Positions 21,437 through 57,275 of a stretch of DNA of 64,000 nucleotides are shown here, piece after piece. The translations under genes were made by a program, and so were the position numbers. The notes below the pieces were generated by a model. The model saw nothing but the letters and a program-made list of their open reading frames with translations. It ran no database searches and had not been told where the DNA came from. How positions within the stretch are numbered: the first letter of the stretch is position 1; each line of letters begins with the position of its first letter. This stretch comes from Arion vulgaris (lineage: Eukaryota; Mollusca; Gastropoda; Stylommatophora; Arionidae): assembly GCA_020796225.1 (NCBI GenBank), contig CM036755.1, positions 58,084,315 through 58,148,314 on the forward strand. Reading direction: 5' to 3'.

Positions 21437-22846
21437 CTATTTACATTGAAAAATCTTCTCTCTGTGTGTATTTCTGTGTGTTTTTAGATTACTGCACCAA
21501 GCAAATCCTACATCACAAATATCACATTTGTACGGTTTCTCTCCTGTGTGTATAATTTTGTGTCTTTTTAAATAATTGAACAGAGAAAATCCTACACCAC
21601 AAACTTCACACCTGTAAGATTTCTCTCCTGTATGTATTATTTTGTGTGATTTGAGATGACTGAGACGAGTAAATGTTGCACCACACAGATCACACTTGTG
21701 AGGTTTTTCTTTGGTGTGTATAATACTATGTCTTTTTAGGTGACTGCTCTGACCAAATCCTACACCACAAACATCACATTTTACGGTCTTTCCCTGTATG
21801 TACCATTGTGTGTTGTTTTAAATAACTATACAGTGCAAATCCAACACCACAAACATCACATTTGTGAGGCTTCTCTCCGGTATGTATAATTTTGTGTCTT
21901 TTCAGTTGACTACCCCGAAGAAATCCTACACCACAAATATCACATATGTATGGCCTCTCCCCAGCATGTATTCTTTTATGCCTTTGTAAATCACTGTAGC
22001 GAGCAAATTCTGTACTACAAATATCGCATTTATACGGCTTCTCTCCAGTATGTATAATTTTGTGTATTTTAAGATCGCTGCGGCGAGCAAATCCTACACC
22101 ACAAACATCACATTTGTAAGGTTTCTCTTCTGTATGTAACTTTTTATGCGCTTTAAGATCAACACGCTGAGTAAATTCGACACCACAAATATCACATCTG
22201 CAACACTTCAATCTTGAACGATTAATTTTACGAGGCACCTTGCCTGTATGTATTCTTTTATGTGTTGTTAGATCACAGCGCCGAACAAATCCTGTTTCAC
22301 AGACATCACATTTGTACAGTTTCTCTCCAGAATGTATTATTTTGTGCTTATTCAGTTGATTGTTTGAGGAAAATTCGATATCACAAGCATCACATTTGTA
22401 AAGTTTCCCTCCCGTATGTATACATTTGTGTTTATTCAGTTGACTGTACCTAGTAAATCCTACACCACAATCATCGCAGGTAAAAGGTTTCTCTACAGTG
22501 TGTTTGTTCTTGTATTTATAAATGTTCACATTGTTTTGTAATGTATAACAATTTTCATGTTGTAGATCGCTATGTGTCTGACAAAAATTTGTTGTCATTT
22601 CATGTTGGACACCTACATATTCAGATTTGTTGCCTTGAGTCACCTGTGAATCTATGTTATTGCCTTCTGTCATATCTGTGACAGTGGTACACCCTTCCAT
22701 GTTAATATTCTTATGCTTAGCACTATCTGGTAGTACATCCACACAATTATGTTGTTTCCATATCTTCATATATTTGTCCCTGTGCATTATTTGTAAATAT
22801 TCAACTTCTGAGATAGAAAATTGGTTCCGGATGTAGGAACATGTTC
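21437..22846 (-). CDS. gene 1 exon 5 (12 C2H2 fingers, frameshifted)
   Basis: Acceptor tctgttacag at 22847-22848. The exon begins with two bases that complete a Gly codon, then TCSYIRNQFSI and MHRDKYMKIWKQ. A linker (LQHENCYTLQNNV) leads into fingers of the form CDVCGVGFARRSDLKIHKIIH. Eight fingers are in frame. The linker between fingers 3 and 4 is longer than normal (TGKVPRKINRSRLKCCR). A run of four A where three are expected, at about 21779-21782 on the plus-strand t run, shifts the frame. After the shift four more fingers follow to a stop at 21437-21439. Finger framework residues are intact on both sides of the shift, so it is recent or a sequencing error. Confidence 0.92.
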
Positions 22847-25800
22847 CTGTAACAGAACAAACAGTAAGTGATGTGAGATGTTAATGAACAAAGACATGTA
22901 TATCACATCATGATACTGTTATTATGTTGCTAACATCTACTTGTTACATGAATACACAGGGGAGGGGGCCATTTGTAGCGCGTTTGACTAACCCTCTGTG
23001 AGTTTTACCGTGAGTCTGTGTACTATTATACCCATCTAAAAGATGGGAAACCAAAGTTGGCTGTTATAGACCCATGAACTTTACCGTGAGTCTGTGTACT
23101 ATGAAAGAAATCCTGACATTGGGCAACAACCCGGTAGCAGTATGATGACAAAGAAGATTTATTGATTCCTTCAGAATTTTCTCTGTTCATCAATATTTTG
23201 TATTCTTTTTCTTGAACACTCCATATTGACCACTTGTTAACCACTCTTTGTGGTCTGTTTGTGATCCGAGCCAAACAGCGGTTATGCGTTGTGCCAGTTA
23301 GGCGCCTACAAGTAGGCCAGCACATCCGATTTCAGAGATACTTTTTATTTACTAAGGTAGCTTACCTAGAGAATATTTTGTTTTGAATATACAGGAAAAA
23401 TGTTGAAAAAAACCAAAACACTTAAGAACTCAACTACCTTTATACTTCCCCCATACACCAGGCTGTTCCACAGTCTGTCTTATTGCAACTTGTTTATCCA
23501 TGTTGTCAATCATAGGAACACGATTGTTTAAATTTTTACTGTAATCATCACTTTGATTTACCTGTTCAAGAAAAATTAAAGATTGAGGGAACAAAATGTT
23601 TAGGAGACTCGTAGTAAACATACAGGACACTGAGAACAAATATATGATCCAACAAGTAACTACTAAAGTCACCAAGCAAATATATCATCCAACAAGTAAC
23701 TACTAAAGTCACTAAGTGAATCCGCCTAAGTGGTTACCGGGCTCAAATTTGGGGTGTAAAGAATAGAACCACTGTTACCTGTCACGCATGTCGTAAGGCG
23801 ACTAAGGAGGTTTAGCTGAAATCGGATGCATGTGTCCTAAATGTGTAGAAGTCTATGCGTTTAGGGGCCTACCAAACCAATGTGCAACGTATGCACGTTT
23901 TTGGCAAAGATCAAACATATCACAAAGAGTGATTAAAATTGGTCGTAAGAACGACACGCAAAAAAAACTAAGTGAATCACATTTAATTAGTATCTGAAAA
24001 ACGTTTGTTATGCCAAACTAGTATTCATATTTTAGCTGAATAGTCTGAGTTTTGTTTTAGTGGAGAAGGAAGGACAGCAAGGCTTGTCAGGCTTCCTAAT
24101 CCTGTCATCAATGTCCTCATTTATACCTACTGATTGGCTGATCTTCTTCTCTTCTTCTCTCGTTCGTCCGCTGTTAATTCAGGTGGAAAGTCATCACACC
24201 TGGTATTGCGTTTCTGACTGATATTTGCAGATCTATATTACCCTTTTACAGGCTGCCCTCAACCATATGGACAGCCTCACCGACTTCAGAGGTACTTGAA
24301 GCTTAGATCCTTCAAGAGTGATCGTTACAAGAAACATGTTGTCCTTGCAACTCTTTCTCGGACAGAAGTGAGTGAAGGCAGAACGGATGATTTCTCTATC
24401 GGATTTCCTGCCTTTGGTGAGGTCGTTCCGTGCGCATCGTAAGATATACATTCTTTAACGATCTTTTAGTGCCGTAAATTTGGCTTGGATCTATGCCAAA
24501 GAGTATATCTACAATATGTGCTCTTTCTGAAATATGAGTTCCTTCCGGATTAGGAACATTCTCAGTCATTGGAGACGCATATGCTTTGTCAAACAAACGA
24601 TCATATGTTGGCGGTATGCTTAGCCTTTAAGTGATCTGAGCCATGGTGTTTGGACGTTGTCTGTGTAGGATGATCAGCGTTTGAAATGTATTGCCCTTAG
24701 ACAATGTTTGGGTTTTTACCATTCAAGCCTTTGCATTATCGACCTTACTTTTCTATCCACTGTGAGTTTGTTCCTGAGTAGGGGTATGCTTGTACGTTTT
24801 GGGGCAAGTGTCGGCACTTGGCAAGGATTTACTCTGCATTTTACCTGCCCCCGAGAACCATTGGACTGGGACTGCGCACAGACATTTTAGAGTGTTGTTT
24901 CAATTGGTGCTAGCAACGCAACTGAAATTTTACGCTCGCCATCATCAACCCCCTCAGTTCTTCCAGGGATGCTAGTTGTAAATGCCACAGTACCTTGCCC
25001 GGTTGTTGCAGGGAGGGCAGTCTTGTTAGGCATCACCCACCTCAGTTCTTCCGGAGATGTTAGTCGGTAATGCAACAGTACCTTGCCCGGTTGTCCCAGG
25101 GAGGGCAGTTTCGTTAGACACTAAAACGCAACTGTAGAATTTACGCTTTGCCAACCTTACCCAGCAAATGTATTTGCGCTAAGCCTTTCATACGGAGTTT
25201 GCGCAATCTTCCATTGTGTCGACACAATCGTTACAGCGTTTTCAGAGACACTTGCCGAGACTTTTGATTCATTACGCATCGTTCTTATTGATTCTTGCCC
25301 CACAGCTGGCAATTTGCTTGCGCCCCTTCACTCCAGGGGGGAGTTGGGAATTCCTTCCCAGATGACTACTGTTTCTTAAGTTTCTGCTGTTTCTCACTGT
25401 GCACACCTTCACAATGCCTCTAACTTGTCCTGACACAGAGCTCAACTCGGGTCCCTCCTCAGAGCTCCGAATTTCACCTTATGTGGCCCCACGTGCAACT
25501 CGTTTCTGGCCCACGTTTTGCTACACCCGGGCCCATGTCACTTCCCTGGATGCCCCCCTTATCCATTCATGTTTATCCATTCATCTTTTTTCTTCGCCCA
25601 TGAGGGATGTGCATTAATAGTCACTCTGGGATTCCGCTTGTCTGCGTTGCGAGTGGATCTCATTCAACATGACTACGTCTGCAACACTACTTATACGAGA
25701 GTATCCTTCCCTTGATCTTGTCCGCTTAGCCAGACAGGAACCACTGTTTTTTTCCCAGGGTCACCATGAGGAGGTGGGGCAGGGTCTTGATTAGTGCCAG

Positions 25801-28800
25801 CTCACTAATCCTGGCGCGACGTTGTCCCCATGCGCCTGTGACCCCATTGGCTGATCTTACTTCCAAGGTTGCCAAATTCACCAACATATTCTATAGCCAT
25901 TCAATATTGGGCCTTCCTTTTATTGTTGCTTCGCAGTACTTTTGTCTATTCTTGGCTGATTTTAAGACCGCCCATTGTGTCGTTTCGAATAATAAAACTT
26001 ATTCATCCAATATAATACTGGCTAAGATCACAACTGACATATATATATATTATTGCATATCGTCTCAATATCCAATTTCTTTTGAATGTATGGTCATCCC
26101 ATTGCCAGGTTGTATTTCTATATTTGCAATAACTGCACTTACACTACTACCTTCTCTCTTGGATAGTATACCCTTCGATCCCTACCCACTTTACAGAGAC
26201 TGCATTACCGCAATCTGTTTCCAGGGTCAACATGGGGAGGTGGAATAGTTTCATGACCAGTGCCTGCTTACTGACCCTGAATCGACACCCTAAATGTGTT
26301 GCGTCTACAGTCCTAGATCGCAGCTGATACATACGTACGGAAGTCACCCAATTATCCACTACGATGGATGCACCTGGTTGATATGGTCACTTCCCTACCA
26401 GATTTTAGTTCTATATTTTACAATAAAAATTCCAAAATGATAACTTAAATATATGGTAACTATAATTGATTAGTTCTATTATAAATGTATATATTTACCT
26501 CAGCATTATCAATGTAGATAAGAGGTCCATGTTCAGGACAGCTTCCTTCATATTTCAGTTGACATTTTTCACAATCTGAACAGAGAGATTAAATATCTTT
26601 AAATTATATAAATTCGAGAAAGTTGCAGATAGATACAAAGAGAATTTCTGTGGCGTTGGATGCACATGTTAAAGCCATCACTGATGAAAACTGCAATGAA
26701 GGTGACATTGTAGTTCGCTACGAAATGTCAGCATGGGCCTTCTCTGCAAGTTCATGTGGCAGAATTGTCAAGGAAGCCAGTGGTGCATTTAGTATGATAA
26801 AAAGCAGCATGACAATGGAGGTACTGGTGGTGACTAATACACTAAGCTGGCTGGAGTCACAAAATTACTCATGCATGCATTTTGAGTGATTTATTTAGTA
26901 TGATCCAAAAGGTGGAGGCTGGTTCGATACGCAGGCAATGGACTGAATCACTACAATGGGTAAACAATTTGCAGAATCACACTTATCTTTGTTCCGTGGC
27001 ATATGGATTTTCATTTAAAGATTTTCATTTCAACTATTCCACGTCTACTAGATTGCAAGAGCTGGGATTGAAGATTGGAGTGGCAAGAAAATAATAGAAC
27101 AACATGTATATGAGTAGGCTCATCAATCAAAATTGATCTGGTGCAGTCAGTCGCTGGATGCTGTGAGAGTTATTGCGAAGGAGATCAGAACACCTATGAA
27201 CATGTCCGGAGTGCAATGAAGATATTCCAAACTGAAACTTGACATTCATATTATTATTATTTTATTCTAGCTTCAACATTAGACTCGCTGATTTCAGGAA
27301 AAAAGAACAGAAAACAACATCTTCATATGATAACAACTGTCAGGTTTTCAACACTTCATACCTTTATGGTAGTAAATGATATGGAATAGTAGACAGGCAC
27401 ATCAGACTGCAGAGCACATACTTCAAGACTGCCCTGAATATGATATACTGAGGCAAACTCACTGGTCTATAATGAAACAACACTCAAAACAGAAAACTAC
27501 AAGGGATGTCTGTGTGATCTACAAAAGACAGTGAAGTTTATACAAGAAACAACGTTGAATATATAGGCAATATTTCAAGTTCATGAAAAGAAGGAAGTTA
27601 ACATATGGTTCTCTGAATAGATCAGCAAAGATAACTAACTGAAATAAACACTGTTATCAACCAACTAAACACATTCAAATTGCTCAACAGAATATAGTAA
27701 AAGCTATGAATGTCAATTTCATTAATAACTATCACATACTTACAGAGAACATTGTCGTCATCATCAGCAAGAGAAAGTGACATGGAACTGGTTCTTTCCT
27801 TCTCTATGAGAGGAGTCATACTAGTTTCTTCTTCATCTGTTGTTTCCTTTTTCACTGTGTAATTCTGGAAATATTATTTTATACATTTAGGAAAGCAGTT
27901 TTTTCCCAGTATATGGTTCACTAATCACATACAGCTCATTAGTTTAGATCATAGGTTCCCAAAGTGGGCGCTGAAGACTTCTAGGGGGGGGTGATAGTGG
28001 GTTCAGAAGCATTTGGGCGGCGTTCATGTTATTAGGGGTCGATGGCTCTAGAAGAAATTAATCATTTATATTTAAAAGTAAATTATTTTTGTGATTTTGC
28101 GACTGAATAATCATTTAAAATTTGAATTCTGCATTTTAATTCATCTTATGCCCGTATTACATGATCCATTTTTTCATTAATTTTCTATTTCATGTATACA
28201 ATCATTTCTTCTTCTTCTTTGCATTCATTCTTTACAACCAATTTGAATCACTCTTTGTGATATGTTTGATCTTTGCCAAGAACGTGTATACGTTGCACAT
28301 TGGTTTGGTAGGCCCCCCATACGCAGACTTCTACGTGTTTAGGACACGTGCATCCGATTTCAGTCAAACCTCCTCTCAGTCGCTTCTTACGACATGCATG
28401 GCAGGTAACAGTGGTTCTATTCTTTACACCCCAAATGTGGGCCCGGTAACCACTCGGGCGATATAATCATTTGAAAATCACCATGTATAACATAAATATA
28501 TATCAATTTTCATAAATATATATCAATAGCATGTATATATTGGAGGGCGTTGGCAAACTTTATAACGGGAGGGCACTCCAAAGTTTATGTTGTGCAAAGT
28601 GGCGGTGGGCCGAAAAAGTTTGGGAATCTATGGTTTAGATCTATAACCCCCTCCCCTATAAATGCAGGCAAAGTCATGGTGCCTCTTGCTGATTTTTGTG
28701 TGACGGCTTGTTTCCATATCAGTATCCCTCATAATTCAGGCGAGTCGTACTCCAACTTCAGAGGTACTTATAATTTAGATCCCTGAGTAAAGGATCAGGG

Positions 28801-29231
28801 TCTCCTGTAGTTCAACTGTATACCATGCGCACACAGAGAATTTACATAAAATGGGATAAAATCAGAGAAATGTTTGGTCAACCCCTAGCAACAACTGATA
28901 TAAGAAAAAAAAAAGATAGAGATATATTGGGCATACTCTGAGAAGAAATGATCAAAGAATCATGAAAGTAGGCATTGAAGTGGGATACAAAGGGTTCATG
29001 CAAGAAAGGCACAAAACTGGCACAACATAGTCACTCTTAGGCTCAGATCCCATATAAATCCCACAGAGTGGTTAACAAGTGGTCGATATGAAGCGTTCAA
29101 AGAAGATTATGTTATATAATATTTTCTTTTGCTGACTACACATATTACTACAAACTAGAACTTAACAAACTCACTTCACAATCTTGCACCTCCTTCAATC
29201 TTGTACTCCACAACAGGCTTTGTATATCCAT
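21437..29231 (-). CDS. zinc-knuckle/C2H2 zinc-finger gene 1 (five coding exons)
   Basis: Deduced gene on the minus strand with coding exons 29231-29175, 27864-27744, 26575-26499, 23561-23438 and 22846-21437. All junctions have gt/ag and compatible phases (0,1,0,1). The protein starts MDIQSLLW, continues through an acidic/basic linker and a knuckle CEKCQ...SCPEHG, then a linker, then 12 C2H2 fingers. The knuckle spacing (C-x2-C-x7-C-x2-H followed by G) matches that found before the SET domain in PRDM9-type proteins, but no SET exon is present. A nuclear DNA-binding role is inferred from the fingers. One base too many at about 21779-21782 makes the current frame stop at 21774 after finger 8. 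Gene 2 at 41.0-57.3 kb has the same exon plan. Confidence 0.85.
22935..23145. repeat. short internally repeated segment in gene 1 intron 4
   Basis: The phrase ttttaccgtgagtctgtgta-ctat occurs at about 23002 and again at about 23081. The first half (gtagcgcgtttgactaaccctctgtg) resembles the tRNA-like head of SINE family I at 38.16 kb. Confidence 0.45.
23205..23366 (-). repeat. SINE family A, 3' part
   Basis: Contains gaccacttgttaaccactct, gatccgagccaaa, cgcctacaagtaggccagca and actttttatttac. The head half is missing. Lies in intron 4 of gene 1. Confidence 0.85.
23438..23561 (-). CDS. gene 1 exon 4 (linker)
   Basis: Acceptor ttcttgaacag, 41 codons starting VNQSDDYSKNLNNRVPM, donor gtagtt, ends phase 1. 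Gene 2 exon 4 starts VNQNDDYGKEFNNQVHM. No domain recognised. Confidence 0.82.
23723..23966 (+). repeat. SINE family B, full length with TSD
   Basis: Runs from cgcctaagtggttaccgggc to a short poly-A. It is flanked by a perfect 12-bp duplication actaagtgaatc (23711-23722 and 23967-23978). This sets the 5' and 3' ends of family B and its orientation, and the A tail plus duplication indicate LINE-mediated retroposition. It lies in intron 3 of gene 1. Confidence 0.94.
24145..24465 (-). repeat. SINE family D (tRNA-related), copy 1
   Basis: Shares with 28.7, 33.9, 34.6 and 44.1 kb the order cgtccgct...ttaattcagg, gactgatatttgca, cgacttcagaggtacttgaa and ttagatcc. The tRNA-like end is weak in this copy; it is clearest at 44.4 kb. 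Confidence 0.6.
24690..26460. repeat. mosaic of middle-repetitive DNA
   Basis: Contains a direct repeat of about 110 bp (24.945-25.02 and 25.04-25.12 kb: cctcagttcttcc, cagtaccttgcccggttgt, gggagggcagt). A second repeated block, cagggtcaccatgaggaggt, lies near 25.76 kb with a diverged copy near 26.22 kb. 24.70-24.79 kb matches 21.28-21.36 kb. No element class could be assigned. The 160-codon plus ORF at 25766-26248 is unrecognised. No SET-domain-like coding segment was found here. Confidence 0.45.
26499..26575 (-). CDS. gene 1 exon 3 (zinc knuckle)
   Basis: Acceptor tctctctgttcag, 77 bp, donor gtaaat. With the T carried from exon 2 it reads Y-CEKCQLKYEGSCPEHG-PLIYIDNAE. Cys, Cys, Cys, His are spaced as in the PRDM9-type pre-SET knuckle (C-x2-C-x7-C-x2-H-G). 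Gene 2 exon 3 differs at only two residues, the strongest conservation between the two genes outside the fingers. Confidence 0.88.
26625..27245 (+). pseudogene. LINE RNase H and C-terminal fragment
   Basis: The plus strand has the distal RNase H part: MEVLVVTNTLSWLES, MSDLFSMIQKVEAGSIRRQW, then TRLQELGLKIGVARK and, near the end, RRRSEHL and TCPEC. The same end occurs at 62.74-63.11 kb (MGVNIGAARK, SEHLWTCPEC after small shifts). It is full of stops and lies in intron 2 of gene 1. Confidence 0.75.
27744..27864 (-). CDS. gene 1 exon 2 (charged linker)
   Basis: Acceptor aatatttccag, 40 codons starting NYTVKKETTDEEETS and ending with an Asp-rich run (ADDDDNVL), donor gtaagt, ends phase 1. Gene 2 exon 2 is clearly homologous (SCTVKQEATDEEEIS). 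No known domain; likely disordered. Confidence 0.85.
27950..28632. mobile_element. hAT-like non-autonomous DNA element
   Basis: Ends are cataggttcccaaag and its inverted counterpart aagtttgggaatctatg (13 of 17 positions match). It is flanked by a perfect 8-bp duplication gtttagat (27942-27949 and 28633-28640), the size made by hAT transposases. Without the nested SINE (28208-28464) it would be about 0.43 kb. No transposase is encoded. Confidence 0.85.
28208..28464 (-). repeat. SINE family B nested in the hAT element
   Basis: Tail cttcttcttctttgcattc at the left, head ggtaaccactcgggcg at the right. Candidate 8-bp duplication aatcattt at 28200-28207 and 28465-28472. Confidence 0.88.
28655..28865 (-). 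repeat. SINE family D, copy 2
   Basis: Contains gcaaagtcatggtgcctctt, gctgatttttgtgtgacggc, caacttcagaggtacttata and ccctgagtaaaggatcag, collinear with 33.9 and 44.1 kb. Confidence 0.72.
28866..28990 (+). pseudogene. short retroelement C-terminal relic
   Basis: aaatcagagaaatgtttggt also occurs at 43.43 kb. The following plus-strand text reads like a degraded RTE C-terminus, but it is too short to be sure. Confidence 0.35.
28991..29113 (+). repeat. SINE family A, 3' part
   Basis: Contains ggctcagatcccatataaat, gtggttaacaagtggtcgat and gttcaaagaagatta. 5' truncated. In intron 1 of gene 1, close to exon 1. Confidence 0.82.
29175..29231 (-). CDS. gene 1 exon 1 (start codon exon)
   Basis: Nineteen codons from ATG at 29231 (MDIQSLLWSTRLKEVQDCE), then donor gtgagt, phase 0. 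The start is chosen because gene 2 has a 19-codon exon beginning MDTQS in the same place, with similar upstream sequence (gatgaagaga / gatgaagatc). A different in-frame ATG 10 bases upstream would hit a stop before the donor. Confidence 0.75.
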
Positions 29232-30521: not shown

Positions 30522-30533
30522 ACAAGTCTTTCT

Positions 30534-31820: not shown

Positions 31821-31832
31821 TGAACAAGATCT

Positions 31833-32098: not shown

Positions 32099-32149
32099 GA
32101 ACAAGATCTACAAGACATGATAGACATATTAGTTTTATCACCATTTTAG

Positions 32150-41027: not shown

Positions 41028-42484
41028 TCATGTACATACTTTTTTATGTGTTTCTAGATGACTGGACTGAGCAAATGCCACACCACACACATCACATATG
41101 TATGACTTCTCTCTCGTATGTAATATTTGATGTTTCTTCAGATAGCTGCACAAAGCAAATTTTGCACCGCAAACTTCACAACTGTAAGGTTTCTCTCCAG
41201 TATGTAATATTTTGTGTTTTTTAAGATAACTAAGCATTGCAAATCCAACACCACAAACTTCACATTTGTACGGCTTCTCTTCTGTATGTAATATTTTGTG
41301 CTTTTTTAGATAAGTGCACAGCGCAAATTTTAGACCACATACATCACATTCGTACGGCTTCTCACCTGTATGTAGTATTTTGTGTGTGCTTAGATGACTG
41401 TGTCGAGCAAAGCCTACACAACAAATATCACAGTAGTAAGGTTTCTCTCCTGTATGTATTCTTTTATGTGCCTTTAGATCACTTCGCCGAGCGAATCCCG
41501 CCATGCAAACCTCACAATTATAAGGTTTCTCCCCTGTATGTACTTTTCTATGTTCATTTAGACCACTGCTCATAACAAATGCCATCTCACAAACATCACA
41601 TTTGAAAGGTTTCTCTCCTGTATGTATTCTTTTATGTGTTTTTAGATCCCCACTGCGAGCAAATAGTGTTCCACAAATATCGCATTTGAAAGGTTTCTCT
41701 CCTGTATGTATTCTTTTATGTGTTTCTAGGTGACCTGAACGAGCAAAGGCTATACCACAAACATCACAATTGTAAGGTTTCTCTCCAGTATGTATTACGT
41801 TATGTACTCTTAGATCATTTCGCCGAGCAAATCTGGCATTACAAATATCACATACGAATGGCTTCTCTCCTGTATGTATCACTTTGTGTCTACTCAGTTG
41901 GCTGTTCAGATAAAATTCTACATCACAAACATCACATTTAAAAGGTTTCACTCCTGTATGTATTATTTTGTGTCTATTTAGTTCACTATTCCTAATAAAC
42001 CCTGCATCACAAACATCACATTTGTAAGGCTTCACTCCTGTATGTATTATTTTATGCCTATTCAGTTCACTATTTCTAGTAAATTCTACACCACAAACAT
42101 CACAGGTAAAATGTTTCATTACAGTTTTTGTGTTCTTACGCTTTTTAACACCCACATTACTTTGTAATGTATAACAATTTTCATGTTGTAGATTGCTAAA
42201 AGTGTCAACAAGATTGATTGTCTTTTCTTGTTGGTCAACTAAATCCTCAGTTTTGATGCCTTGAGTCACTTGAGAATCTGTGTTATTGCCATCTGTCATA
42301 TCTGCGACACTGGTACACTTTTCCATGTTTATATTTTTACGTATAGAACTACCACTGTACTCATCTAGCACATCTCTTTGCTTACGTTGTTTTATAAATT
42401 CCATATAGTTGTCACTGTGCATCATACGCACGTTGTCAACTTTTGAGATAGGAAGGTTGTTCTGTGCATAGGAAGATGTTTCTC
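41028..42484 (-). CDS. gene 2 exon 5 (13 C2H2 fingers)
   Basis: Acceptor ctctgttacag; two bases complete Gly; ETSSYAQNNLPIS, MMHSDNYMEFI; conserved LQHENCYTLQSNV; then 13 tandem 28-residue units with TGEKP-type linkers. Framework residues (C..C, F, L, H...H) are constant while helix positions differ: for example RNSEL.RH in fingers 1-2, RSGHL.TH and RSGDL.TH in 5-6, and a group of three similar ALCSYLKKH-type fingers (10-12) that suggests recent internal duplication. The last finger ends HKKVCT-stop, with Cys in place of the final His. Fully open. Confidence 0.96.
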
Positions 42485-48400: not shown

Positions 48401-51400
48401 TCTCCCTTTCACTGTAATGTACCAGTTGGCACCAAAATATTCCAAACCTCATCTTTGCATTATGTGTTTGAAAAACATTGATTTTAGAATTCTTACTCTT
48501 GTTCAAACTTTTTTCAAATTCTTACTCTTTGGATCAGGTTTCATTGCATGCAATCCTCTTTTTAAAATATCACCATTTGGGGTTTTTTTTGCAGTCCATG
48601 TGATTTTTAGCATTCTTCTAGGAACCCACATATCTGTATCTATTAGCAATCTTATTTATTAAATGACACATAGCTATTGTGAACATTTCAATATCCGGGA
48701 AAGTAAGTGTTAGAACTCTTGTTCTTTGTGCCAGGCAGTTAAGTTTGTTATTACATCTTCAGGTTGGTGATCTTCTGGCAACTCATTTTGATGGAGTAGG
48801 TTTCCAGAGCATTGTTTCAAATCCCAGATGTGGCTGTTTCACTCAAAGTGATGGTAGGTGCAATATCACAAGATGGGCAGACTTTTACTCCAGATGTGGC
48901 TTGGCAGTGATTCTCTTACAACCTCAAGGTGTGCGGAAGATGAAAGGTTGATCAACTGCCAACTAATAAGTCTCCAGCAGGGTTTATCACAGTAGAGTTC
49001 CTGTCAGTTCTTCTTTTGTTAGTCAGACAAACCTGTATCTAGGTTGAACCATTGACACATGAAGCAAAATCTTGACCAGTATGTTTCCTAGTCTTGACTC
49101 ATCATGCAAAACATGAGCTGTCAATGCACCATTTATAACAAATAACTATAGTTGATTAGTTCTAACATAAATGTATTTATTTACCTCAGCATTATCAATG
49201 TAAATGAGAGCTCCATGTACAGGACAACTTCCTTCATACTTCAGTTGACATTTCTCACAATCTGAACAGAGAGATTGACTATTATTTAACAATGTGTTTA
49301 AAACTTGTGTTATTTTGTCAACCAAGTTCTCACATCTGTTCATTTAATGGTAAAATAAAACCACCAAACAAACTGTAATTAAAGTGTTTTGTTCAAATTT
49401 CTGAGAGTACACTGGGAGATTGTATCTATCTATCTATTCTCTAATCCTGTTTTGTCTTTCAGCGTCAGGTCGAAAAGGAGACAACTGGAGCGAGCCTCTC
49501 TATGCACTTTGTCTTTCTTTCTCTACTCCAATCCTGATTTGCCTCACAGCTTCAGGGTAAGAATAAATTTCTAGTACGGGCTTTTGTGTGTGCTTCATAG
49601 TGTCTTTCGTCGCCTCTGTTATCCCTGAGGTCCACCTTTTGCGTGATCAGCCTTTTGCTTTGTATCCACTGTATTGGAGCAACATTGCTCTCTGTGGCGC
49701 ACTGCCTGTTGGTAATCTCCTTATGTGACCAAACCATTTACTTTGTTACTTCTTGATAAAATTCAGTACTGATGTTGTACTCACTTTTTACCTGATGTCT
49801 TCCTTTGTAAACCGATCTCTTCTTGTTACTCCCAGCATTCTGCGTAGACATTTCATCTCTGTTGTGACTAGTATTCTTCTGTCATTTAATATCAGTGTCC
49901 CGATATTGTATAGGACAGAGAAATTTAAACCTGCTTGCCCAAAACTGGTGTCATGCATTGACCGATTGATTGGACCATCATCATTGCACTTTGGTGAGTA
50001 ACCATGCATGCTCTAATCTTTTTTTAAACAGGAAGATCTAAGCAGCAGTGCACAAAGTCTGCAGCACCGGTAAGGGTTTCGCAAAACTGTTGCCACGCAT
50101 GTGCAAGTCAATGGTTTTATTTTCTCTAGAACAGAAAAAAAGTGTTGACTCTACCAATGGATTGAACACGGGATGTTGCCATCAGGTGACACCATAGCAT
50201 TTAACCATTCAGACACCCGCACTGGTGCCCGCAAGGGAAGCAAAGGAAGTAAGAGGCGACTGATGTAGGCCCTAGGGATGCTAGCCTAGTAAATCATCTT
50301 CTTTGCGTTCATTCTTTACGATCAATTTTAATCACTCTTTGTGATATGTTTGATCTTTGCCAAGAACGTGTATACGTTGCACATTGGTTTGGTAGGCCCT
50401 AAACTCATAGACTTCTACACGTTTAGGACATGTGCATCCGATTTCAGCCAAACCTCCTTAGTCGCCTCTTACGACATGCGTGGCAGGTAACAGTGGTTCT
50501 ATTCTTTACACCCCAAATTTGGGCCCCGCAAAACAACTCAGGTGAGCCTAGTAAATAAAAAGCAGAGTAGAAATTGGATGTGCTGGCCTACTTGTAGGCG
50601 CATAACTGGCACAATGTACAATCGCTCTTTGGCTCAGATCACATACAAATCACACAGAGTGGTTGACAAGTGGTCAATATGGAGCGTTCGAAGAATAAGA
50701 ACCATTCAGCCACCCGCACTGGTGCTGCACTTACAAGAGATCATGGATGTCCATGGATGTGTGTGTGTGGGGGATGTAGTGGTCTTGTGTGTTTGTTTTA
50801 AGGCCCTTTGTAAGCTGCTCTTGATGCCGTCGCTCCATCTTTTGCATGGTCTTCCTCTTGCTTTGTACACGTTATACTTTTCCTGTGTGGCTCTCTGTGG
50901 TAGGTGATACCAGAGCATTCTTGTCAGGTGTCCAAACCATTTAATCTGTTGTTCTTTTATGAATTGTATGACCGGTTTCACATTCAGTCTTTTTCTGATT
51001 TCTTCATTTCTAATTTTGTCTCTTATTGCCACATCTGCAGTTCGTCCGATTTAGTAAAAAGAACAGAAGACAACATTTTCAAATGATAGTCACTGTTAGG
51101 CTTCTAACACTTCATAACTTTTGACATTAAATAATATGGGACAGAAGCTAAGTATAATTAGTTGGTTATGTACTCTGGAAAAAATAACTCAAAACTATCA
51201 AAAAGGCTGGTTACAGAAACTGCAACAACAAAAACTGATGTGTTAGTAACACTTTCATGACCATGTTTCATTAGTAACGCTGAAGTGGGAAAACTAATTT
51301 CAATGTTCAGATTTTGCAGACCTATGTTACAATGGGACTAGAAATAAATAAGAAGAAATAGATATGTGTAAATATGCTACAGTGGTACTGGTCACATGTT

Positions 51401-54400
51401 CAAAATAAATTAAAATGAATGCAACAAGCGGAAGAGAAAACTTCTCAATGAACACCTTTCTAGAAACAGCTGACGATTGACAAGTGATATATGTGTAAAC
51501 TGTGGCTAAGTGTTTACAAAGCCAAGGGCCTTTGCCTTGCATTTCAAAGGTCATGGATTCAAACCCAAACGAAGCCTGTTCTGTTCACGGGTAAAATTTT
51601 TCCAGAGACCCCTAAGATTGTTGTGGAGCTACAGAGTTTGTGTTTTGTGCAATACTCTCGGTAAGTGGTATGCCACATCTGTGGAGAGGGACTGAGCTAT
51701 ATGCTGTAAAACCAGATGCAATGGTCAATCCTTCGGCTTTAGACCATTTTTAGACTATTTATATGTGTAAACTTCCATTTGAATATTTTAGGATATTTGG
51801 TGAGAATAGGCTGTTGAGCAGCACATTGACATGGTTGCCATCATGAGTTGACCTCTTCATGTCAGATTTGTCTGATGCAAACTGGTACTGCTCACTTCAT
51901 CATCTGCAGCGTAACTCCATATGGACAGAATGCCACTCTACATGGTTTTGGTTTGGACTCTTTTTACCAGGAGGCACACTAAAGAGCGTTTTTAATTCTT
52001 AAAAACAAATGGCTTGCAAAAACATGGCTTTTCCCCTGGTCCACTAAGAGTTAATGTGAACAATCTAATTTGATTGTTTTTGTACATTTAAATCTCAAGG
52101 GCTTATCAGAATACTAAGAGCATGCATATTCCCAGTTGCAAAGTATGGGTGTGAGACAATGGGATAATTTAACAAGTAAGGAAAAAATTACTAAAAATGC
52201 TTTTGATTACAAGTGTTACAGAACAATCCTTCGTATAACATGGACAGAGATGAGATAACATGGATAGAGAAGAGAACATGGACAGAGAAAAGATAACATG
52301 GACAGAGAAGAGATAACATGAACAGACAAGAGATAACATGGACAGAGAAGAGATAACATGGACAGAGAAGAGATAACATGGACAGACAAGATATAACATG
52401 GACGGAGAAGAGATAACATGGACAGACAAGAGATAACATGGACAGACAAGATATAACATGGACAGAGAAGAGATAACATGGACAGACAAGATATAACATG
52501 GACAGACAAGATATAACATGGACAGAGAAGAGATAACATGGACAGACAAGATATAACATGGACAGAGAAGAGATAACATGGACAGAGAAGAGATAACATG
52601 GACAGAGAAGAGATAACATGGACAGAGAAGAGATAACATGGACAGAGAAGAGATAACATGGACAGAGATGAGATAACATGGACAGAGAAGAGATAACATG
52701 GACAGAGAAGAGATAACATGGACAGAGAAGAGATAACATGGACAGAGATGAGATAACATGGACAGAGAAGAGATAACATGGACAGACAAGATATAACATG
52801 GACAGACAAGATATAACATGGACAGAGAAGAGATAACATGGACAGACAAGATATAACATGGACAGAGAAGAGATAACATGGACAGACAAGATATAACATG
52901 GACAGAGAAGAGATAACATGGACAGAGAAGAGATAACATGGACAGAGAAGAGATAACATGGACAGAGATGAGATAACATGGACAGAGAAGAGATAACATG
53001 GACAGACAAGATATAACATGGACAGACAAGATATAACATGGACAGAGAAGAGATAACATGGACAGACAAGATATAACATGGACAGAGAAGAGATAACATG
53101 GACAGACAAGATATAACATGGACAGAGAAGAGATAACATGGACAGAGAAGAGATAACATGGACAGAGAAGAGATAACATGGACAGAGAAGAGATAACATG
53201 GACAGAGATGAGATAACATGGACAGAGAAGAGAACAAATACATCTATCTAGCAAGAATTCAAAATTAAAGAAAAGTGGCTAATGCTACAAATAAGAAAAT
53301 TGAAATATTTTGGACATACAAAAAACATGAAAGGCTGGAGAAGACAAGTGTGGAAGGTGGCATGCCAGCAAAGAGGAGGATCACAGAGAAGATGGATTCA
53401 AGATATGATAATGGTTTGAGCATGCCGTCAGCAAAGGTGGGACTATTTGAGAGAGGAATTCAGAAGGACTGTTAGGGTAGCAAAGCTCTGCATAACACAA
53501 GCTGTTGGATGATGATGACATACTTACATATAACATTATCCTCATCAGTAGAAGAATGTGATGCAGAACTGGTCCTTTCTTTCTTTATGACGGCAGTCGT
53601 ACTAATTTCTTCCTCATCAGTTGCTTCCTGTTTCACTGTACAACTCTGGAAATATTATTTAGAATAGAAGTTGTGTCTATGCCATAGTACATTAATTATA
53701 GGATGGTGGTTTATGGCTTGGTTATTGGTTATTAAACTGACATCATTGCACTCCAGACAGACCCATAGGTGCTCAGTCCCCACCAACAGATATCGAAGCG
53801 TATGAATACTGACGGTTCCCATGGCTCGCTGATTAAACACACTCCTAACTCTGCCACTAAGGCATCCAGTTCTACTTGTACACCGAGTAACTCCAAACTG
53901 CCTAAACTGCTGGATCGATTCAACATCTATTTTAGTGTCCTCATCCAACAGACAGTCACGAAGAGACCAAAGTACATCCCCCTTATCCATCTTCAACTCG
54001 CTACATATGGCTACATTTGTTAATTACAATAAAACCTAACCACAGCATGAAAATAAATCAATCATGATAAATGTATGACACAATGCTATAGCTGTGTATA
54101 GATAGCTCATCATCATCAAGTAGCTTGTCCTGATCAGAACTTTCCCACACTAACACTCCTGAATGTCTCTCTCTCATAGGCCAGATGTCCACTCTGCAGC
54201 CGTCATGATCAAGTCATCAGTAACATCCTGAATCAATCTTCTCCGTGGTCTTCCTCTTCTCCAGGATGCATCCTTTCATGATGGTCTTTTCCAACCCTTC
54301 GTGTCTATATGTCCAAAATATCTCAATTTTCTCATTCTTATTTGTAGCATCAGCCAGTTGTCTTTGATTTTGAGTTCTTTCTGGGTAGATCTATTTATTC

Positions 54401-57275
54401 TCCTGTCTGTCCATGATATACAGAGTCCTCTTCTGTAATACTTAGGAGCATACAGGACAACTACTTCCTGTAGGAGGATGCAGGTTGAGGCCGTTACTGC
54501 TGCCTTCCATTAGCTCTCTGGTACTCTGTTTACTGTGGCCGTTATTGTTTCTGACTCTCAGTCTATGCTTCGGAAGATCCAGAATGGCAGGTGGCGGTAT
54601 GAATGGATATCGTCTAAAGAGGTTTCCAACCTACAGAGACTCACATGGATCTACTGTCTTGATCATGCGAGTGTTCGTTGCAGCAAGAAAGTGGGCATAC
54701 TTGCATCAAAAGCATTGACTGTTGGGGAGTTTAGGATGGATACGGAGTTCTTAGGTCTCCTGGCGGCCTACTGTTGGATGAAGACACTAAAATAGATATT
54801 GAATCAATAGGGCGGCTTAGGGAGTTTGGAATTACACTTTAACAAGTAGAGCTGGTTGCTTGAGGGGTAGAGAGAGAAGTGTGTTTAACCATTGAGCCTC
54901 AGGAACCATCAGTATGCATACCCTTCAAAATCAGTTGGGGGAGACTGAGCACCTATGGGTCTGCACGGAGTGCTGTGACGTCAGTTCATTAACCAATAAC
55001 TTGTATTCAAAAGGACAAATATTTATTTTCACTGCCTTGTTAAATGTCTGTGCTTCACACAAATAATGTACCAGTGGGAATTAGTAGAATGTCAGAAATC
55101 CAGCAGGCAATCAAAGTGTCAACTGAGAAAACTGATCAAACACCAATCTCGGTTCAGAACCTGGGATATTAGTGTGCCAACTGAGAAAATAGATCAAACA
55201 CCAATCTCGGTTCAGAACCTGAGATATTAGTGTGCCAACTGAGAAAACTGATCAAACACCAATCTCGGTTCAGAACCTGGGATATTAGTGTGCCAACTGA
55301 GAAAACTGATCAAACACCAATCTCGGTTCAGAACCTGGGATATTAGTGTGCCAACTGAGAAAATAGATCAAACACTGATCTCGGTTCAGAACCTGGGATA
55401 TTAGTGTGCCAACTGAGAAAACTGATCAAACACCAATCTCGGTTCAGAACCTGGGATATTAGTGTGCCAACTGAGAAAATAGATCAAACACTGATCTCGG
55501 TTCAGAGAACCTGGGGTATTCATGACAGATGTAAGATCAGCATCCGAAGCACTTCAGTTTAAGAATTGTCATGTCTACTGTCTAACTGTGAAAAGGTCAC
55601 TATGAAGTGGATACCATCTTCCTGTGAAGTACTAAGAAATGAACAAGTAGACTGATTAACTGGCTAAAGAGGTGCTACATAGTAGCAACCAGACTTAGTT
55701 ACATGTTATTAGAAGAGACAAAGGATCACATCAATAAGAAAAGTCACCAACGTACGACGGCTAGTTGTCATTCTGCGCTTCACAACATGATACAACTGAT
55801 AGACATATATGATTGATTGATTAATAGGACCATCATCATTGCACTTCAGTGAGTAATCATGTGTGCTCCGATCTCTTTTTACACAGAAAGATCTCAGCTG
55901 CAGTGCACAAACTCCATAGCAACGGCGAGGTTACCGACATAGTTTTGAAGATGGTGAAGATATTTTGTCGGAATTTTAATTTCAATCTTTTTCTAATGAA
56001 TTATGCCAGGCAGCAGCTTTCTAGCCTGCTCTTCTCGATTTTGAACTGCCAAGGGTTCTTTTAAGGGCTCAAATTGAACACAGGACCTACGTTTTATCGC
56101 CCGTCTTCGATAGGACTTGGAACTCAATCTCACCTACGCCGAGATCAAGGGTCTCTAGAAAAATGTCCCAATGGCTCTACGAGGGAGCAAACCGGTTAGA
56201 CATATATACATAGTTCAAGATTAGAAATTCAGCCCTGTGCACATTTACCCTAGATAACAGAGAATATATTTAAACACTGTACTGACTATAGTATACAAAG
56301 GTAAATGCACTAGTCCAGTCAAAGGAAATTAAAAACCAAACAATACAGACGTCTATATAAACTACCAAGGACAGTAAAGTTTATACTTCTTCTTCTTCTT
56401 CTGCATTCTCACTAGATTGGGATTTCGGATTCTCTAATAAAGGCAGCCGTCTGTCTCAGATTATCAGCCACGCCATACAGTTTGTCTTGGACACTAGTGT
56501 AAGTGGGCCACCTCTTTCTTCTCAAGTCTGCATACTGGGGACAGTTCTGTAGGATATAATTCCTATGATTTATGCTTCCCCGTTTGTGTCGACCTCTTCC
56601 TGCAGTAAGCCCTCGCCACCCTCGTGATGATGGGTCTGACATTCTTACCGCGTGGCTAAATCTCAGAGGCAGATTGGTGACCGTAGAATCCGTTATCCCA
56701 TTCCGCATTGTGAGGGTCGTTGCACCATGTTATGCGCCTTACGGCCTGGTGCATCCGTTTTCTGCAAGCATTTGTTTCGGGTTAGCATTCCTAGCGGACA
56801 CATGCATCCGATTTCAACCAAACCTCCTTAGTCGCCTCTTACGACATGCATGGCAGGTAACAGTGGTTCTATTCTTTACGTCCCAAATTTGGGCCCGGTA
56901 ACCACTCGGGCGTAAAGTTTATACAACAAACAAATTTGTAGATATAGATAATAGACCAGTAAATGAAAGAAAAGAGACCTCTGTGTGAGCTACAAAAGAA
57001 CAGAGATATTTATACAAGAGACAACATTGAATATATAGACAATATTTCAAGCGAACGAAAGGAAGGAAAATAATTTCTTACCGCGATATAAACAATATAT
57101 TTCAGCAAAAAAAAAAAAGAAAGAAAATAACCTGGATATAAACAATATATTTCAACAAATAAAACAATTTCTTACCTCGATATAAACAATACATTATAGC
57201 AAGTTAAAGAATTTCTACCTCATAAAATGGCTCTCGCTGTCCACAATCATATGACAGATTACTTTGTGTATCCAT
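41028..57275 (-). CDS. zinc-knuckle/C2H2 zinc-finger gene 2 (five coding exons)
   Basis: Deduced gene on the minus strand: exons 57275-57219, 53645-53528, 49261-49185, 46616-46514 and 42484-41028, about 603 codons, no internal break. It has the same exon number, junction phases and conserved sequence blocks as gene 1: MDTQS start, TVKQEATDEEE linker, YCEKCQ...SCPVHG knuckle, VNQNDDYGKEFNNQ linker and a finger exon with 13 C2H2 units. Introns are swollen by transposons (16 kb total against 8 kb in gene 1). A nuclear DNA-binding role is inferred. The knuckle resembles that of PRDM9-type proteins, but no SET domain lies between it and the fingers. A separate SET-bearing isoform cannot be excluded without transcripts. 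Confidence 0.88.
42775..43135 (+). mobile_element. Penelope-like element 3' region
   Basis: ttcaacgcactacattccta and ctttctcttctcatgctcc match the PLE arms at 45.5/46.0 kb. Then a T-rich part, gtcactcctgttgtttcg, ttgataaaggtcttttggtcgaaac and gttaaactacattactttgt. Confidence 0.8.
43198..43275 (-). repeat. SINE family F, 3' fragment
   Basis: ggggtttaaagcttaaggat, cttcattacaccgggttttac and ccatatggctcggtccc, as in 3.89-3.96 kb. Confidence 0.75.
43690..43830 (-). repeat. SINE family B, 3' half, diverged
   Basis: tttgcgttcattcttaacaa, ttcactctttgtgatctgt and gcaccgagaatgtgcgctgt follow the order of the B tail. Confidence 0.65.
44085..44416 (-). repeat. tRNA-derived SINE, family D, best copy
   Basis: Minus-strand head: A box gtagctcagcctgctagctg and B box ggttcgaacctac at normal spacing; then gactcaggacaata-type sequence, gtacctctgaagtcgg, a body, and a tail cggacgaaagaaaagaaaga. 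It shows that family D is tRNA-derived. Confidence 0.85.
44500..44650 (+). mobile_element. Penelope-like element 3' fragment
   Basis: ttgataacagccttttgagca and gtaaaaactaccttacttc, a diverged version of the PLE end. Confidence 0.55.
45138..46369. mobile_element. foldback Penelope-like element with 13-bp TSD
   Basis: Two inverted arms (about 45199-45729 and 45837-46369, near-identical over about 530 bp) surround a 107-bp spacer. An extra 60 bp at the left end carries the 3' terminus (gactgcagtaaaac). Perfect duplication aaactaatgtctt flanks the whole (45125-45137 and 46370-46382), so it arose by one insertion. Each arm holds an internal tandem duplication of about 74 bp (tacattcttatgcttcttag...) and the ttgataaagg-ccttgttggtc-gaaacg motif. 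Confidence 0.93.
45730..45975 (+). pseudogene. PLE GIY-YIG endonuclease remnant
   Basis: Plus strand: YCKRCNKAYIGETGRRLSDR, FVQHLRDIRQCSVT, then in another frame THFNDTGHSGACDV and RSCSSDDRSRFALENRLISLYG. CxxC followed by the AYIGET box and the late N-E...LI..Y segment are features of the GIY-YIG nuclease that closes Penelope polyproteins. Homologous to 61.4-61.8 kb. Confidence 0.85.
46514..46616 (-). CDS. gene 2 exon 4 (linker)
   Basis: Acceptor tttcttaaacag, 34 codons VNQNDDYGKEFNNQVHM...GQNIQA plus one base, donor gtatgt (a strong consensus donor), phase 1. Confidence 0.85.
46845..47184 (-). repeat. composite SINE (common head plus LINE-C tail)
   Basis: Right end: ggtaaccactcgggcgg and ctccttagtcgcctcttac (head). 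Left part: gaccgatgtaccagaattcc, cttcagcaccatttggagct and gacgatgtgtccagtttcag (LINE-C tail). Same composite as 5.07-5.45 kb. Confidence 0.75.
47185..47378 (+). repeat. SINE family F, 5'-truncated
   Basis: Begins at the B box (gggttcaaatctc); then tccagagacccttgg, ctcggcaggtggcatgcca and tctggtgcaatgaggtcaat. Confidence 0.78.
47425..47580 (-). repeat. SINE family F, partial
   Basis: atggcacgccacctgctga, accctagggatctctggaaa and gtctggattcgaatgcttga. Confidence 0.65.
47845..48250 (-). repeat. SINE family A interrupted by a PLE fragment
   Basis: Left part to 48057 (gaccacttgttataccctt, gtgatctgagcctaag, cctcagtcacctctcacaac). Right part from 48206 (ttctttgctcctcttgcgag, ggtaatatgcaggcg). Confidence 0.88.
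48058..48205. mobile_element. 148-bp PLE insertion with internal inversion and TSD
   Basis: Inserted in SINE A with perfect 12-bp duplication taatattctttg (48046-48057 and 48206-48217). The left about 110 bp are the reverse complement of the PLE 3' region (acaaagtactgtagttttac, gaccaacaaggcctttatcaa). The right about 30 bp are the PLE 3' terminus in forward orientation (gttttactgcagtctcatct). Confidence 0.88.
48265..48650 (-). pseudogene. RTE-like LINE C-terminal fragment
   Basis: Minus strand: GREKMLDVLTSWFNKR, LVSELISCTRERVM, and upstream RVRILKSMFFKHIMQR, the usual R..FFGHVMR...REK.LD.LTSW layout of RTE C-termini. Confidence 0.72.
48651..49184. other. gene 2 intron 3, unassigned
   Basis: No feature recognised between the RTE fragment and exon 3. 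Confidence 0.4.
49185..49261 (-). CDS. gene 2 exon 3 (zinc knuckle)
   Basis: Acceptor ctctctgttcag, 77 bp, donor gtaaat. Y-CEKCQLKYEGSCPVHG-ALIYIDNAE. Same C-x2-C-x7-C-x2-H-G spacing as the PRDM9-type knuckle. A longer ORF from 49343 reads through the acceptor and is not the real exon. Confidence 0.9.
49430..49955 (-). pseudogene. RTE-like LINE 3' fragment (c)
   Basis: Minus strand: TEMKCLRRMLGVTRRDRF, SHKEITNRQCATES, IQWIQSK, YEAHTKARTRN. Same subfamily as 38.9-39.3 kb. A partial duplication of its 3' end (caatcctg...cagcttcagggtaag) lies at 49.44-49.56 kb. Confidence 0.8.
49958..50202 (-). repeat. SINE-like family E, partial
   Basis: gaccgattgattggaccatc, gcagtgcacaaagtctgcag and attgaacacgggatgttgcc. 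Confidence 0.68.
50228..50699 (+). repeat. SINE family A carrying a nested SINE B
   Basis: Left part 50228-50294, right part 50557-50699. The whole has a long duplication aaccattcag-a/c-cacccgcactggtg at 50203-50227 and 50700-50724 (24 of 25 identical). Confidence 0.93.
50295..50544 (-). repeat. SINE family B nested in SINE A
   Basis: Perfect 12-bp duplication agcctagtaaat (50283-50294 and 50545-50556). Removing the insert and one repeat restores the family A sequence ctagtaaataaaaagcag. Confidence 0.95.
50735..51050 (-). pseudogene. RTE-like LINE C-terminal fragment
   Basis: Minus strand: IRDKIRNEEIRKRLNVKP, FIKEQQIKWFGHLTRM, ARGRPCKRWSDGI. Contains the widespread WFGHL.R....RGRP..RW signature. 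Confidence 0.88.
51055..51150 (-). other. intron segment shared with gene 1
   Basis: aaaaagaacagaagacaaca, atgatagtcactgttaggct and caacacttcataac-like text matches 27.29-27.39 kb, in the corresponding intron (between exons 2 and 3) of gene 1. Paralogous intron sequence is therefore still alignable. Confidence 0.65.
51490..51765 (+). repeat. SINE family F, near full length
   Basis: tgtggctaagtgtttacaaa (A-box region), tcatggattcaaacccaa (B-box region), tccagagacccctaag, gtggtatgccac and accagatgcaatggtcaatc. Confidence 0.8.
51770..52085. other. unassigned sequence
   Basis: No feature recognised. Confidence 0.4.
52086..53520 (+). pseudogene. RTE-like LINE fragment (a), swollen by a satellite
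   Basis: Before the array: IRILRACIFPVAKYGCET. After it: the tail of the wteKRTN segment, then IRKLKYFGHTKNMKGWRRQ-like text, AKRRITEKMDSRYD, and a terminal ggatgatgatg. Confidence 0.88.
52232..53232 (+). repeat. 20-bp satellite, about 50 copies, grown inside an RTE ORF
   Basis: The unit ataacatggacagagaagag repeats with three common variants (gagaagagat, gacaagatat, gagatgagat). The single-copy precursor (atggacagagaagagaacaaata) is normal RTE coding sequence, seen unrepeated at 38.36 and 39.65 kb. The minus strand is open in all three frames (327-361 codons) only because the unit lacks stops. Confidence 0.97.
53528..53645 (-). CDS. gene 2 exon 2 (charged linker)
   Basis: Acceptor aatatttccag, 39 codons SCTVKQEATDEEEIS...STDEDNVI, donor gtaagt, phase 1. 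The lysine-glutamate KKERTSS block is shared with gene 1. Confidence 0.87.
53700..54010 (-). pseudogene. LINE RNase H C-terminal fragment
   Basis: Minus strand: MDKGDVLWSLRDCLLDEDTK, IDVESIQQFRQFGVT, CLSGRVRSVFNQRAMG, GTEHLWVCLEC. Same LINE as 32.4-33.4 kb. Confidence 0.85.
54108..54448 (-). pseudogene. RTE-like LINE 3' fragment (a), minus copy
   Basis: catcatcaagtagcttgtcc begins the inverted (gat)n tail; ataggccagatgtcc, ctgaatcaatcttctccgtg and cttgttt-type text follow. Same as 9.05-9.67 kb in the other orientation. Confidence 0.85.
54449..55015 (+). pseudogene. LINE RNase H fragment, plus copy
   Basis: VIVSDSQSMLRKIQNGRWRY (RNase H Asp box), EWISSKEVSNLQRLTWIYC, then LLDEDTK, FNH-like text and TEHLWVCTEC after shifts. 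With 53.70-54.01 kb it forms an inverted pair. Confidence 0.85.
55115..55518. repeat. 58-bp satellite, about 7 copies
   Basis: The unit gtgtgccaactgagaaaact-gatcaaacaccaatctcggt-tcagaacctgggatatta repeats every 58 bp. A two-state alternation (actgat/atagat; caccaat/cactgat) hints at multi-unit copying. Confidence 0.94.
55519..55810. other. unassigned sequence
   Basis: Nothing recognised. Gene 2 intron 1. Confidence 0.4.
55812..56205 (-). repeat. SINE-like family E
   Basis: tgattgattaataggaccat, gcacaaactccatagcaacg, gaattatgccaggcagc, gaactgccaagggttc and ctctacgagggagcaaa. Confidence 0.8.
56405..56712 (-). pseudogene. I-like LINE C-terminal fragment
   Basis: Minus strand: RGRHKRGSINHRNYILQNC, PQYADLRRKRWPTYTSVQDK, LYGVADNLRQTAAFI. 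The H.LQ.CP.Y..LR...WP pattern is the LINE C-terminal knuckle region. Confidence 0.8.
56715..56913 (-). repeat. SINE common head, partial
   Basis: gcatccgatttcaaccaaac, ctccttagtcgcctcttac, ggttctattctttacg and ggtaaccactcgggcg. The tail differs from families B and C. Confidence 0.82.
57219..57275 (-). CDS. gene 2 exon 1 (start codon exon)
   Basis: ATG at 57275; 19 codons MDTQSNLSYDCGQREPFYE; donor gtagaa; phase 0. Same length and phase as gene 1 exon 1. Confidence 0.75.

What the first reader, a model, noticed from the sequence alone, without database searches (positions are those of the whole stretch)
21437..57275. Linked pair of zinc-finger genes with a PRDM9-type knuckle but no SET domain
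Both genes can be built independently as five coding exons with the same phases (0,1,0,1). Four exons outside the finger array are alignable between copies. The knuckle exon (C-x2-C-x7-C-x2-H-G, preceded by Tyr from a split codon) is nearly identical in the two genes and has the spacing of the knuckle in front of the PRDM9 SET domain. Exon 3 ends and exon 4 begins in phase 0, so the knuckle joins straight to the finger part. Seen: exons, splice sites, motifs. Known: PRDM9-type order is knuckle, SET, fingers. Inferred: this family lost or never had SET and is expanding by tandem duplication.
Basis: partly seen in the sequence, partly recalled or inferred. Interest (0 to 1): 0.78.

Follow-up and report, generated by a model that had tools for sequence, protein, structure and literature searches.

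The report
PRDM9-derived zinc-finger genes without SET
The genome of a probable land slug carries dozens of zinc-finger genes that keep a small zinc-binding piece of the recombination gene PRDM9 but lack its enzyme part, which looks like an independent parallel to the way our own largest zinc-finger family is thought to have arisen from PRDM9.

Summary
Each gene has a five-exon model on the minus strand with phases 0,1,0,1, usable splice sites and a near-identical PRDM-type knuckle exon. The right gene's finger exon is open (13 fingers); the left gene's breaks frame after 8. Exon 1 matches only weakly.

A SET profile finds nothing in the window (best E 5.1); held-out 35-residue SET pieces were found 25 of 25 times.

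The window's own genome has 52 knuckle-exon matches. Five (four genes) have SET exons within 9 kb; 47 have no SET match within 100 kb. Of 46 SET-free loci fetched, 41 keep an open 77-nt knuckle exon (phase 1 in, 0 out) and all four zinc ligands. Three SET-bearing genes have the same exon, and their SET exon starts in phase 0; two have a weak KRAB-like match upstream.

Best reading: a clustered, dispersed family that descends from PRDM9-like genes, kept knuckle and fingers, and lost SET and the KRAB-like part. I found no report of it in eight paper searches. Expression and function are untested.

The parts
57219..57275 (-). Gene B exon 1 (19 codons, MDTQS..., ends phase 0)
   Evidence: ATG and GT donor read; coordinates. 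Inferred; the weakest exon.
53528..53645 (-). Gene B exon 2 (118 nt, phase 0 in, phase 1 out; acidic end that runs into the knuckle)
   Evidence: Aligns with A exon 2; splice to exon 3 lifts the knuckle profile score from 30.6 to 49.1 bits.
49185..49261 (-). Gene B exon 3: zinc knuckle exon, 77 nt, phase 1 in, phase 0 out
46514..46616 (-). Gene B exon 4 (103 nt, phase 0 in, phase 1 out)
   Evidence: Aligns with A exon 4 and with the third copy.
41028..42484 (-). Gene B exon 5: leader plus 13 C2H2 fingers (the last ends in Cys), open to its stop
29175..29231 (-). Gene A exon 1 (19 codons, MDIQS..., ends phase 0)
   Evidence: weak likeness to B exon 1.
27744..27864 (-). Gene A exon 2 (121 nt)
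26499..26575 (-). Gene A exon 3: zinc knuckle exon, 77 nt, phase 1 in, phase 0 out
23459..23561 (-). Gene A exon 4 (103 nt with the donor that aligns to B's; a second phase-1 donor lies downstream)
21774..22846 (-). Gene A exon 5: leader plus 8 C2H2 fingers, then an in-frame stop after a shift of frame
21437..21817 (-). Four further intact fingers of gene A in another frame

Best explanation
Genes A and B are members of a lineage-specific poly-zinc-finger family that descends from a PRDM9-like gene. The ancestor had a KRAB-like part, knuckle, SET and fingers. The family kept the 77-nt knuckle exon, the acidic stretch in front of it and a finger exon, and lost the SET exons and the KRAB-like part. 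Because the knuckle exon ends in phase 0 and the exon after it starts in phase 0, with SET or without, SET exons could drop out without breaking the frame. The family then multiplied in clusters and dispersed. Shown: exon anatomy, no SET, shared exon boundaries, copy number, purifying selection on the knuckle. Inferred: descent by loss rather than exon shuffling, splicing and expression. Inferred function: sequence-specific DNA binding by the fingers, with no methyltransferase activity of their own; the conserved knuckle serves as a small protein-binding module that recruits a partner, most likely for repression.
For: Knuckle profile: exon 3 at 31.4 and 30.6 bits, spliced with exon 2 at 49 bits in both genes. 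No SET in the window: best of 2846 segments E 5.1, while 25 of 25 held-out 35-residue SET pieces were found at E 7.3e-5 or better; Pfam scans of the minus-strand introns gave no SET and neither did PDB scans of part of them. No KRAB-like piece in the window (best E 2); control pieces found at E 1.9e-4 or better. Genome: 52 knuckle matches, a lower bound by the tool's own note; 5 of 52 have a SET match within 100 kb, in fact within 9 kb. 44 of 50 loci examined have an open 77-nt exon between AG and GT with all four zinc ligands: 41 of 46 SET-free loci and 3 of 4 SET-bearing genes. In the three SET-bearing genes with that exon the first SET exon starts in phase 0. A KRAB-like match lies upstream of two SET-bearing genes with a knuckle match (E 0.002, 0.02) and near no SET-free knuckle. 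Between A and B, dN/dS is 0.07 in the knuckle exon, 0.39 to 0.76 in exons 2, 4 and the leader, 0.37 in the fingers; over 664 usable pairs of the 41 SET-free exons the median is 0.22. The third copy and copies on C3:62 and C23 also have an exon 4 starting in phase 0 and a finger exon. Zinc ligands and core residues of the fingers are nearly invariant while helix positions +1, +3 and +6 vary most.
Against: No transcript was seen, so no junction is proven. Gene A's finger frame is broken, and so is the array of one further copy (L083). 5 of 46 SET-free loci do not keep the exact exon. Exon 1 matches weakly. Exon 4 shows no detectable likeness to the SET exon it replaces, so it gives no direct trace of loss. 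The knuckle is only 26 residues, so a tree of it resolves little. KRAB-like matches are weak. The finger leader of the C2:56 copy differs. For most SET-free loci only about 700 bp were fetched, so absence of SET rests there on the genome-wide search. Nothing here tests repression or a partner of the knuckle.
Confidence: 0.72

Rival explanations
1. Exon shuffling: an unrelated poly-zinc-finger gene captured the knuckle exon (and the end of exon 2) from a PRDM9-like gene; there was no SET loss in that line.
For: Exons 1, 4 and the finger leader show no detectable likeness to PRDM9-like genes; exon 4 is not a SET remnant by shuffle test.
Against: The pre-knuckle acidic stretch, on a separate exon, is kept as well (31 to 49 bits), so at least two neighbouring exons would have had to move. 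The order knuckle then fingers is the PRDM9 order.
Confidence: 0.17
2. The copies are mostly decaying duplicates without a function; gene A is a pseudogene and gene B a chance survivor.
For: Frame breaks in gene A and in the L083 array; one knuckle match with a stop and one finger leader with a stop.
Against: 41 of 46 SET-free loci keep exon length, splice dinucleotides, frame and zinc ligands; median dN/dS 0.22; open finger exons of up to 905 codons next to knuckles.
Confidence: 0.07
3. SET is present but far away or too diverged, so that the genes are ordinary PRDM9-like genes.
For: Introns are long in this genome (SET exon 2 of the C5 gene lies about 15 kb from SET exon 1).
Against: No match in the window with a profile that finds 35-residue pieces of distant SETs; no SET match within 100 kb of 47 of 52 knuckles. 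In the copies where the whole stretch from knuckle to finger exon was in hand (A, B, L014, L017, L082, L083, L085) the profile reached no better than E 1.4.
Confidence: 0.03

Closest known systems
PRDM9 (invertebrate PRDM9-like proteins, e.g. Gigantopelta, Crassostrea, Argopecten, Lineus, Rhopilema)
   Same: Knuckle with the same spacing and the DDD-type stretch before it, in front of a C2H2 array; in this genome the same 77-nt exon with the same phases.
   Different: No SET, no KRAB-like part.
KRAB zinc-finger proteins of tetrapods
   Same: Clustered, numerous poly-finger genes that keep one N-terminal module; their KRAB module has an ancestral form in PRDM9 (PMC8835667, passages; the descent proposed by Birtle and Ponting 2006 is recalled, only its reference entry was seen).
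   Different: The module kept here is the knuckle, not KRAB; no KRAB by Pfam in gene B or by profile in the window.
Partial PRDM9 orthologs of vertebrates (PMC5519329, passages)
   Same: PRDM9 descendants that lost domains.
   Different: The partial forms in those passages lost N-terminal domains or fingers and were discussed for their SET; here SET itself is missing and copies are numerous.
PRDM4 zinc knuckle (PF18445; PDB 2l9z)
   Same: Same type of knuckle; weaker match than PRDM9's (15.3 against 18.7 bits).
   Different: PRDM4 has a PR/SET domain after the knuckle (PMC3811882, passages).

Membership tests
PRDM9 / PRDM family | PR/SET domain | tested here: not met
   SET profile best E 5.1 in the window; 25 of 25 held-out 35-residue pieces found in the control; no SET match within 100 kb.
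PRDM9 / PRDM family | Zinc knuckle of PRDM4/9/11 type | tested here: met
   PF18445 just below its curated cut-off in gene A.
PRDM9 / PRDM family | KRAB-like / SSXRD-like N-terminal part | tested here: not met
   Profile best E 2 in the window; held-out control pieces E 1.9e-4 or better.
PRDM9 / PRDM family | C-terminal C2H2 array | tested here: met
   13 fingers in B; 8 plus 4 in another frame in A.
PRDM9 / PRDM family | Knuckle exon boundaries and phases as in SET-bearing genes of the same genome | tested here: met
   77 nt, phase 1 in and 0 out, in 3 of 4 SET-bearing genes and 41 of 46 SET-free loci.
KRAB zinc-finger proteins | KRAB domain | tested here: not met
   Pfam scan of gene B's whole protein at E up to 10 lists no KRAB; profile search of the window.
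KRAB zinc-finger proteins | Many clustered poly-finger genes | tested here: met
   Clusters of 3 to 14 knuckle exons on C3:58, C3:62, C2:56, C6:51, C2:80.
KRAB zinc-finger proteins | Repression of transposons through a co-repressor | not testable with these tools
   No expression or binding data.

The most novel reading that the evidence does not exclude
PRDM9 has seeded a large zinc-finger family a second time: where tetrapods kept KRAB plus fingers, this mollusc line kept the zinc knuckle plus fingers. The knuckle is then a stand-alone recruiting module, and the clusters are a fast-evolving arsenal of DNA-binding factors, perhaps against transposons or in the germ line.
Probability: 0.35. 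Interest if true: 0.82.

Novelty: new variant of a known kind. Interest (0 to 1): 0.62.

Why it matters
The zinc knuckle of PRDM proteins has no settled function that I know of (recalled). A family of some 41 intact copies that keep it under purifying selection without SET says that it works on its own, and gives natural material to find its partner. It also gives an invertebrate case for comparing how a recombination gene gives rise to a large zinc-finger family, next to still-present SET-bearing PRDM9-like genes in the same genome.

Tried and rejected
Exon 4 as a worn-down SET exon: rejected, alignment scores no better than shuffles. SET hidden in introns: Pfam and PDB scans of intron frames gave only chance-level matches. 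Not covered by Pfam scans of the minus strand: 52101-57275 and 30501-40999; the profile covers the whole window. Direct look for relatives of the N-terminal parts in the protein database: none at E 10 or better (230 and 3 candidates); one search shows how narrow the word filter was, since mollusc PRDM9-like proteins that should score better than E 10 by my estimate were not among its 3 candidates, so this is no proof of absence. The whole-protein search listed 120 of 4476 hits; 8 of those 120 hold the knuckle motif with HG, and all 8 show SET sequence after it, P0054 only its second part. A genome search with exon 2 did not complete. A tree of the 77-nt exons groups copies mostly by cluster but is too short to root.

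Host: 26 large contigs (C26 20.9 Mb, C27 1.7 Mb) and 1.52 Gb fit the slug Arion vulgaris, described with 26 pseudochromosomes (PMC9392753, passages; its 1.54 Gb size is recalled).

Papers: full-text searches; passages read in PMC13218726, PMC5519329, PMC2779102, PMC9392753, PMC8835667, PMC3811882, PMC10451705. None of these showed a SET-free PRDM9-derived family; the library is open-access only.

Full report
Anatomy. Both genes lie on the minus strand. Gene B: exons 57275-57219, 53645-53528, 49261-49185, 46616-46514, 42484-41028. Gene A: 29231-29175, 27864-27744, 26575-26499, 23561-23459, 22846-21774. Phases are 0,1,0,1 in both; the acceptors of exons 2, 3 and 5 are nearly the same in the two genes. 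Exon 3 (77 nt) encodes YCEKCQLKYEGSCP[VE]HG[AP]LIYIDNAE, the Tyr being split over the intron. B has 13 fingers, the last ending in Cys. A has 8 before a stop and 4 in another frame.

The knuckle is of PRDM type. In the PDB the exon's 26 residues match PRDM9 (E 0.011), PRDM4 (0.15) and PRDM11 (0.45) and no other chain up to E 10. A profile from eight invertebrate PRDM9-like proteins finds exon 3 of both genes and, at E below 0.05, nothing else in the window. The splice to exon 2 adds about 18 bits in both genes, because exon 2 ends in the acidic stretch that precedes the knuckle in those proteins. This supports the splice without RNA.

SET is absent. The SET profile's best window match has E 5.1. 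In a leave-one-out control all 25 pieces of 35 residues were found at E 7.3e-5 or better, also for the cnidarian and the nemertean protein. A KRAB-like profile finds nothing either (best E 2), with held-out pieces at E 1.9e-4 or better.

The genome. The window lies at G000:C3:58084315-58148314. A search with the knuckle exon gave 52 matches up to E 10, 39 of them below 1e-3. A search with a gastropod SET gave 28 matches. Five of the 52 knuckle matches, in four genes (C5, C11 with two matches, C16, C26), lie within 9 kb of a SET match; the other 47 have none within 100 kb, the nearest being 115 kb. Further SET-bearing loci without a knuckle match exist, one of them (C26:13.70 Mb) with both SET exons.

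I examined 50 of these loci, covering 51 of the 52 matches (C2:80047793 was not fetched). 44 have an open 77-nt exon between AG and GT that keeps the four zinc ligands; the Gly after His is kept in 37 of 44. By class: 41 of 46 SET-free loci, 3 of 4 SET-bearing genes; the exception is C16. The six without it are L057, L062, L064, L068, L073, L079. In the C5, C26 and C11 SET-bearing genes the first SET exon starts in phase 0, and it ends in phase 0 as well. So the exon after the knuckle begins in phase 0 with or without SET.

A KRAB-like search gave six matches up to E 10. Three lie upstream of SET-bearing loci (C26:19.02 Mb, E 0.002; C5, E 0.02; C26:13.69 Mb, E 0.39); none lies within 100 kb of a SET-free knuckle.

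Family. The 41 intact SET-free exons lie in clusters: C2:79-80 Mb (14), C3:62 (6), C2:56 (4), C3:58 (3), C6:51 (3), and single copies. The third copy beside the window has knuckle, exon 4 and finger exon. Finger exons with a related leader stand 3 to 5 kb from five knuckles on C3:62, and near those on C14 and C2:58. A 7-kb locus on C6 showed a knuckle but no finger exon within reach (L084).

Selection. Between A and B the knuckle exon has dN 0.032 and dS 0.455 (ratio 0.07). Exon 2 has 0.39, exon 4 0.70, the leader 0.76, the fingers 0.37; exon 1 gives 0.13 on only 12 codons with saturated dS. All exons outside the fingers together give 0.53, bootstrap 0.35 to 0.82. Among the 41 SET-free exons, 664 of 820 pairs had usable dS (0.05 to 2); the median ratio is 0.22 and 99% are below 1. 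Pairs are not independent.

Mechanism. Fingers keep ligands and core while helix positions vary, as expected of DNA-binding arrays with diverging targets. Without SET the proteins cannot methylate histones themselves. That the knuckle is the most conserved part outside the fingers suggests that it binds a partner. Recruitment for repression is my choice by analogy with KRAB zinc-finger proteins; nothing here tests it.

Against known work. Passages of PMC2779102 report Prdm9 in the snail Lottia with concerted evolution of its fingers. Passages of PMC10451705 list one PRDM9 with one PR domain and ten fingers in a bivalve. Passages of the Arion vulgaris genome paper hold no mention of zinc finger, C2H2 or PRDM in its main text. 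I found no report of a SET-free, knuckle-bearing family in the searches named; subscription journals and preprints were not searched.

Noticed in passing
G000 C9:58-69 Mb, C7:60.7-61.0 Mb, C10:20 Mb, C21:14.9 Mb: Dozens of finger exons have a leader weakly like that of gene A (E 1e-4 to 10) where no knuckle exon was found; perhaps a larger family in which the knuckle is lost or diverged.
   Followed up: no
L083:3350-5306: The finger array of a C3:62 copy is split over two overlapping frames, like gene A's; real decay or assembly errors in repeats.
   Followed up: partly
L072 (C11:42553800-42554400): The knuckle exon of a SET-bearing PRDM9-like gene is partly duplicated in tandem.
   Followed up: no
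window 13942-16777: Broken LINE-like element: endonuclease and reverse transcriptase domains by Pfam, read with stops passed over.
   Followed up: partly
window 2299-3329: Two overlapping minus-strand frames that look mariner-like by eye (recalled); a one-frame Pfam scan gave nothing.
   Followed up: partly
window 4049-5181, 6327-7339, 18834-19848, 34613-35785, 52126-53330: Minisatellites with units of 49, 31, 65, 46 and 20 bp, some giving long spurious open frames.
   Followed up: no
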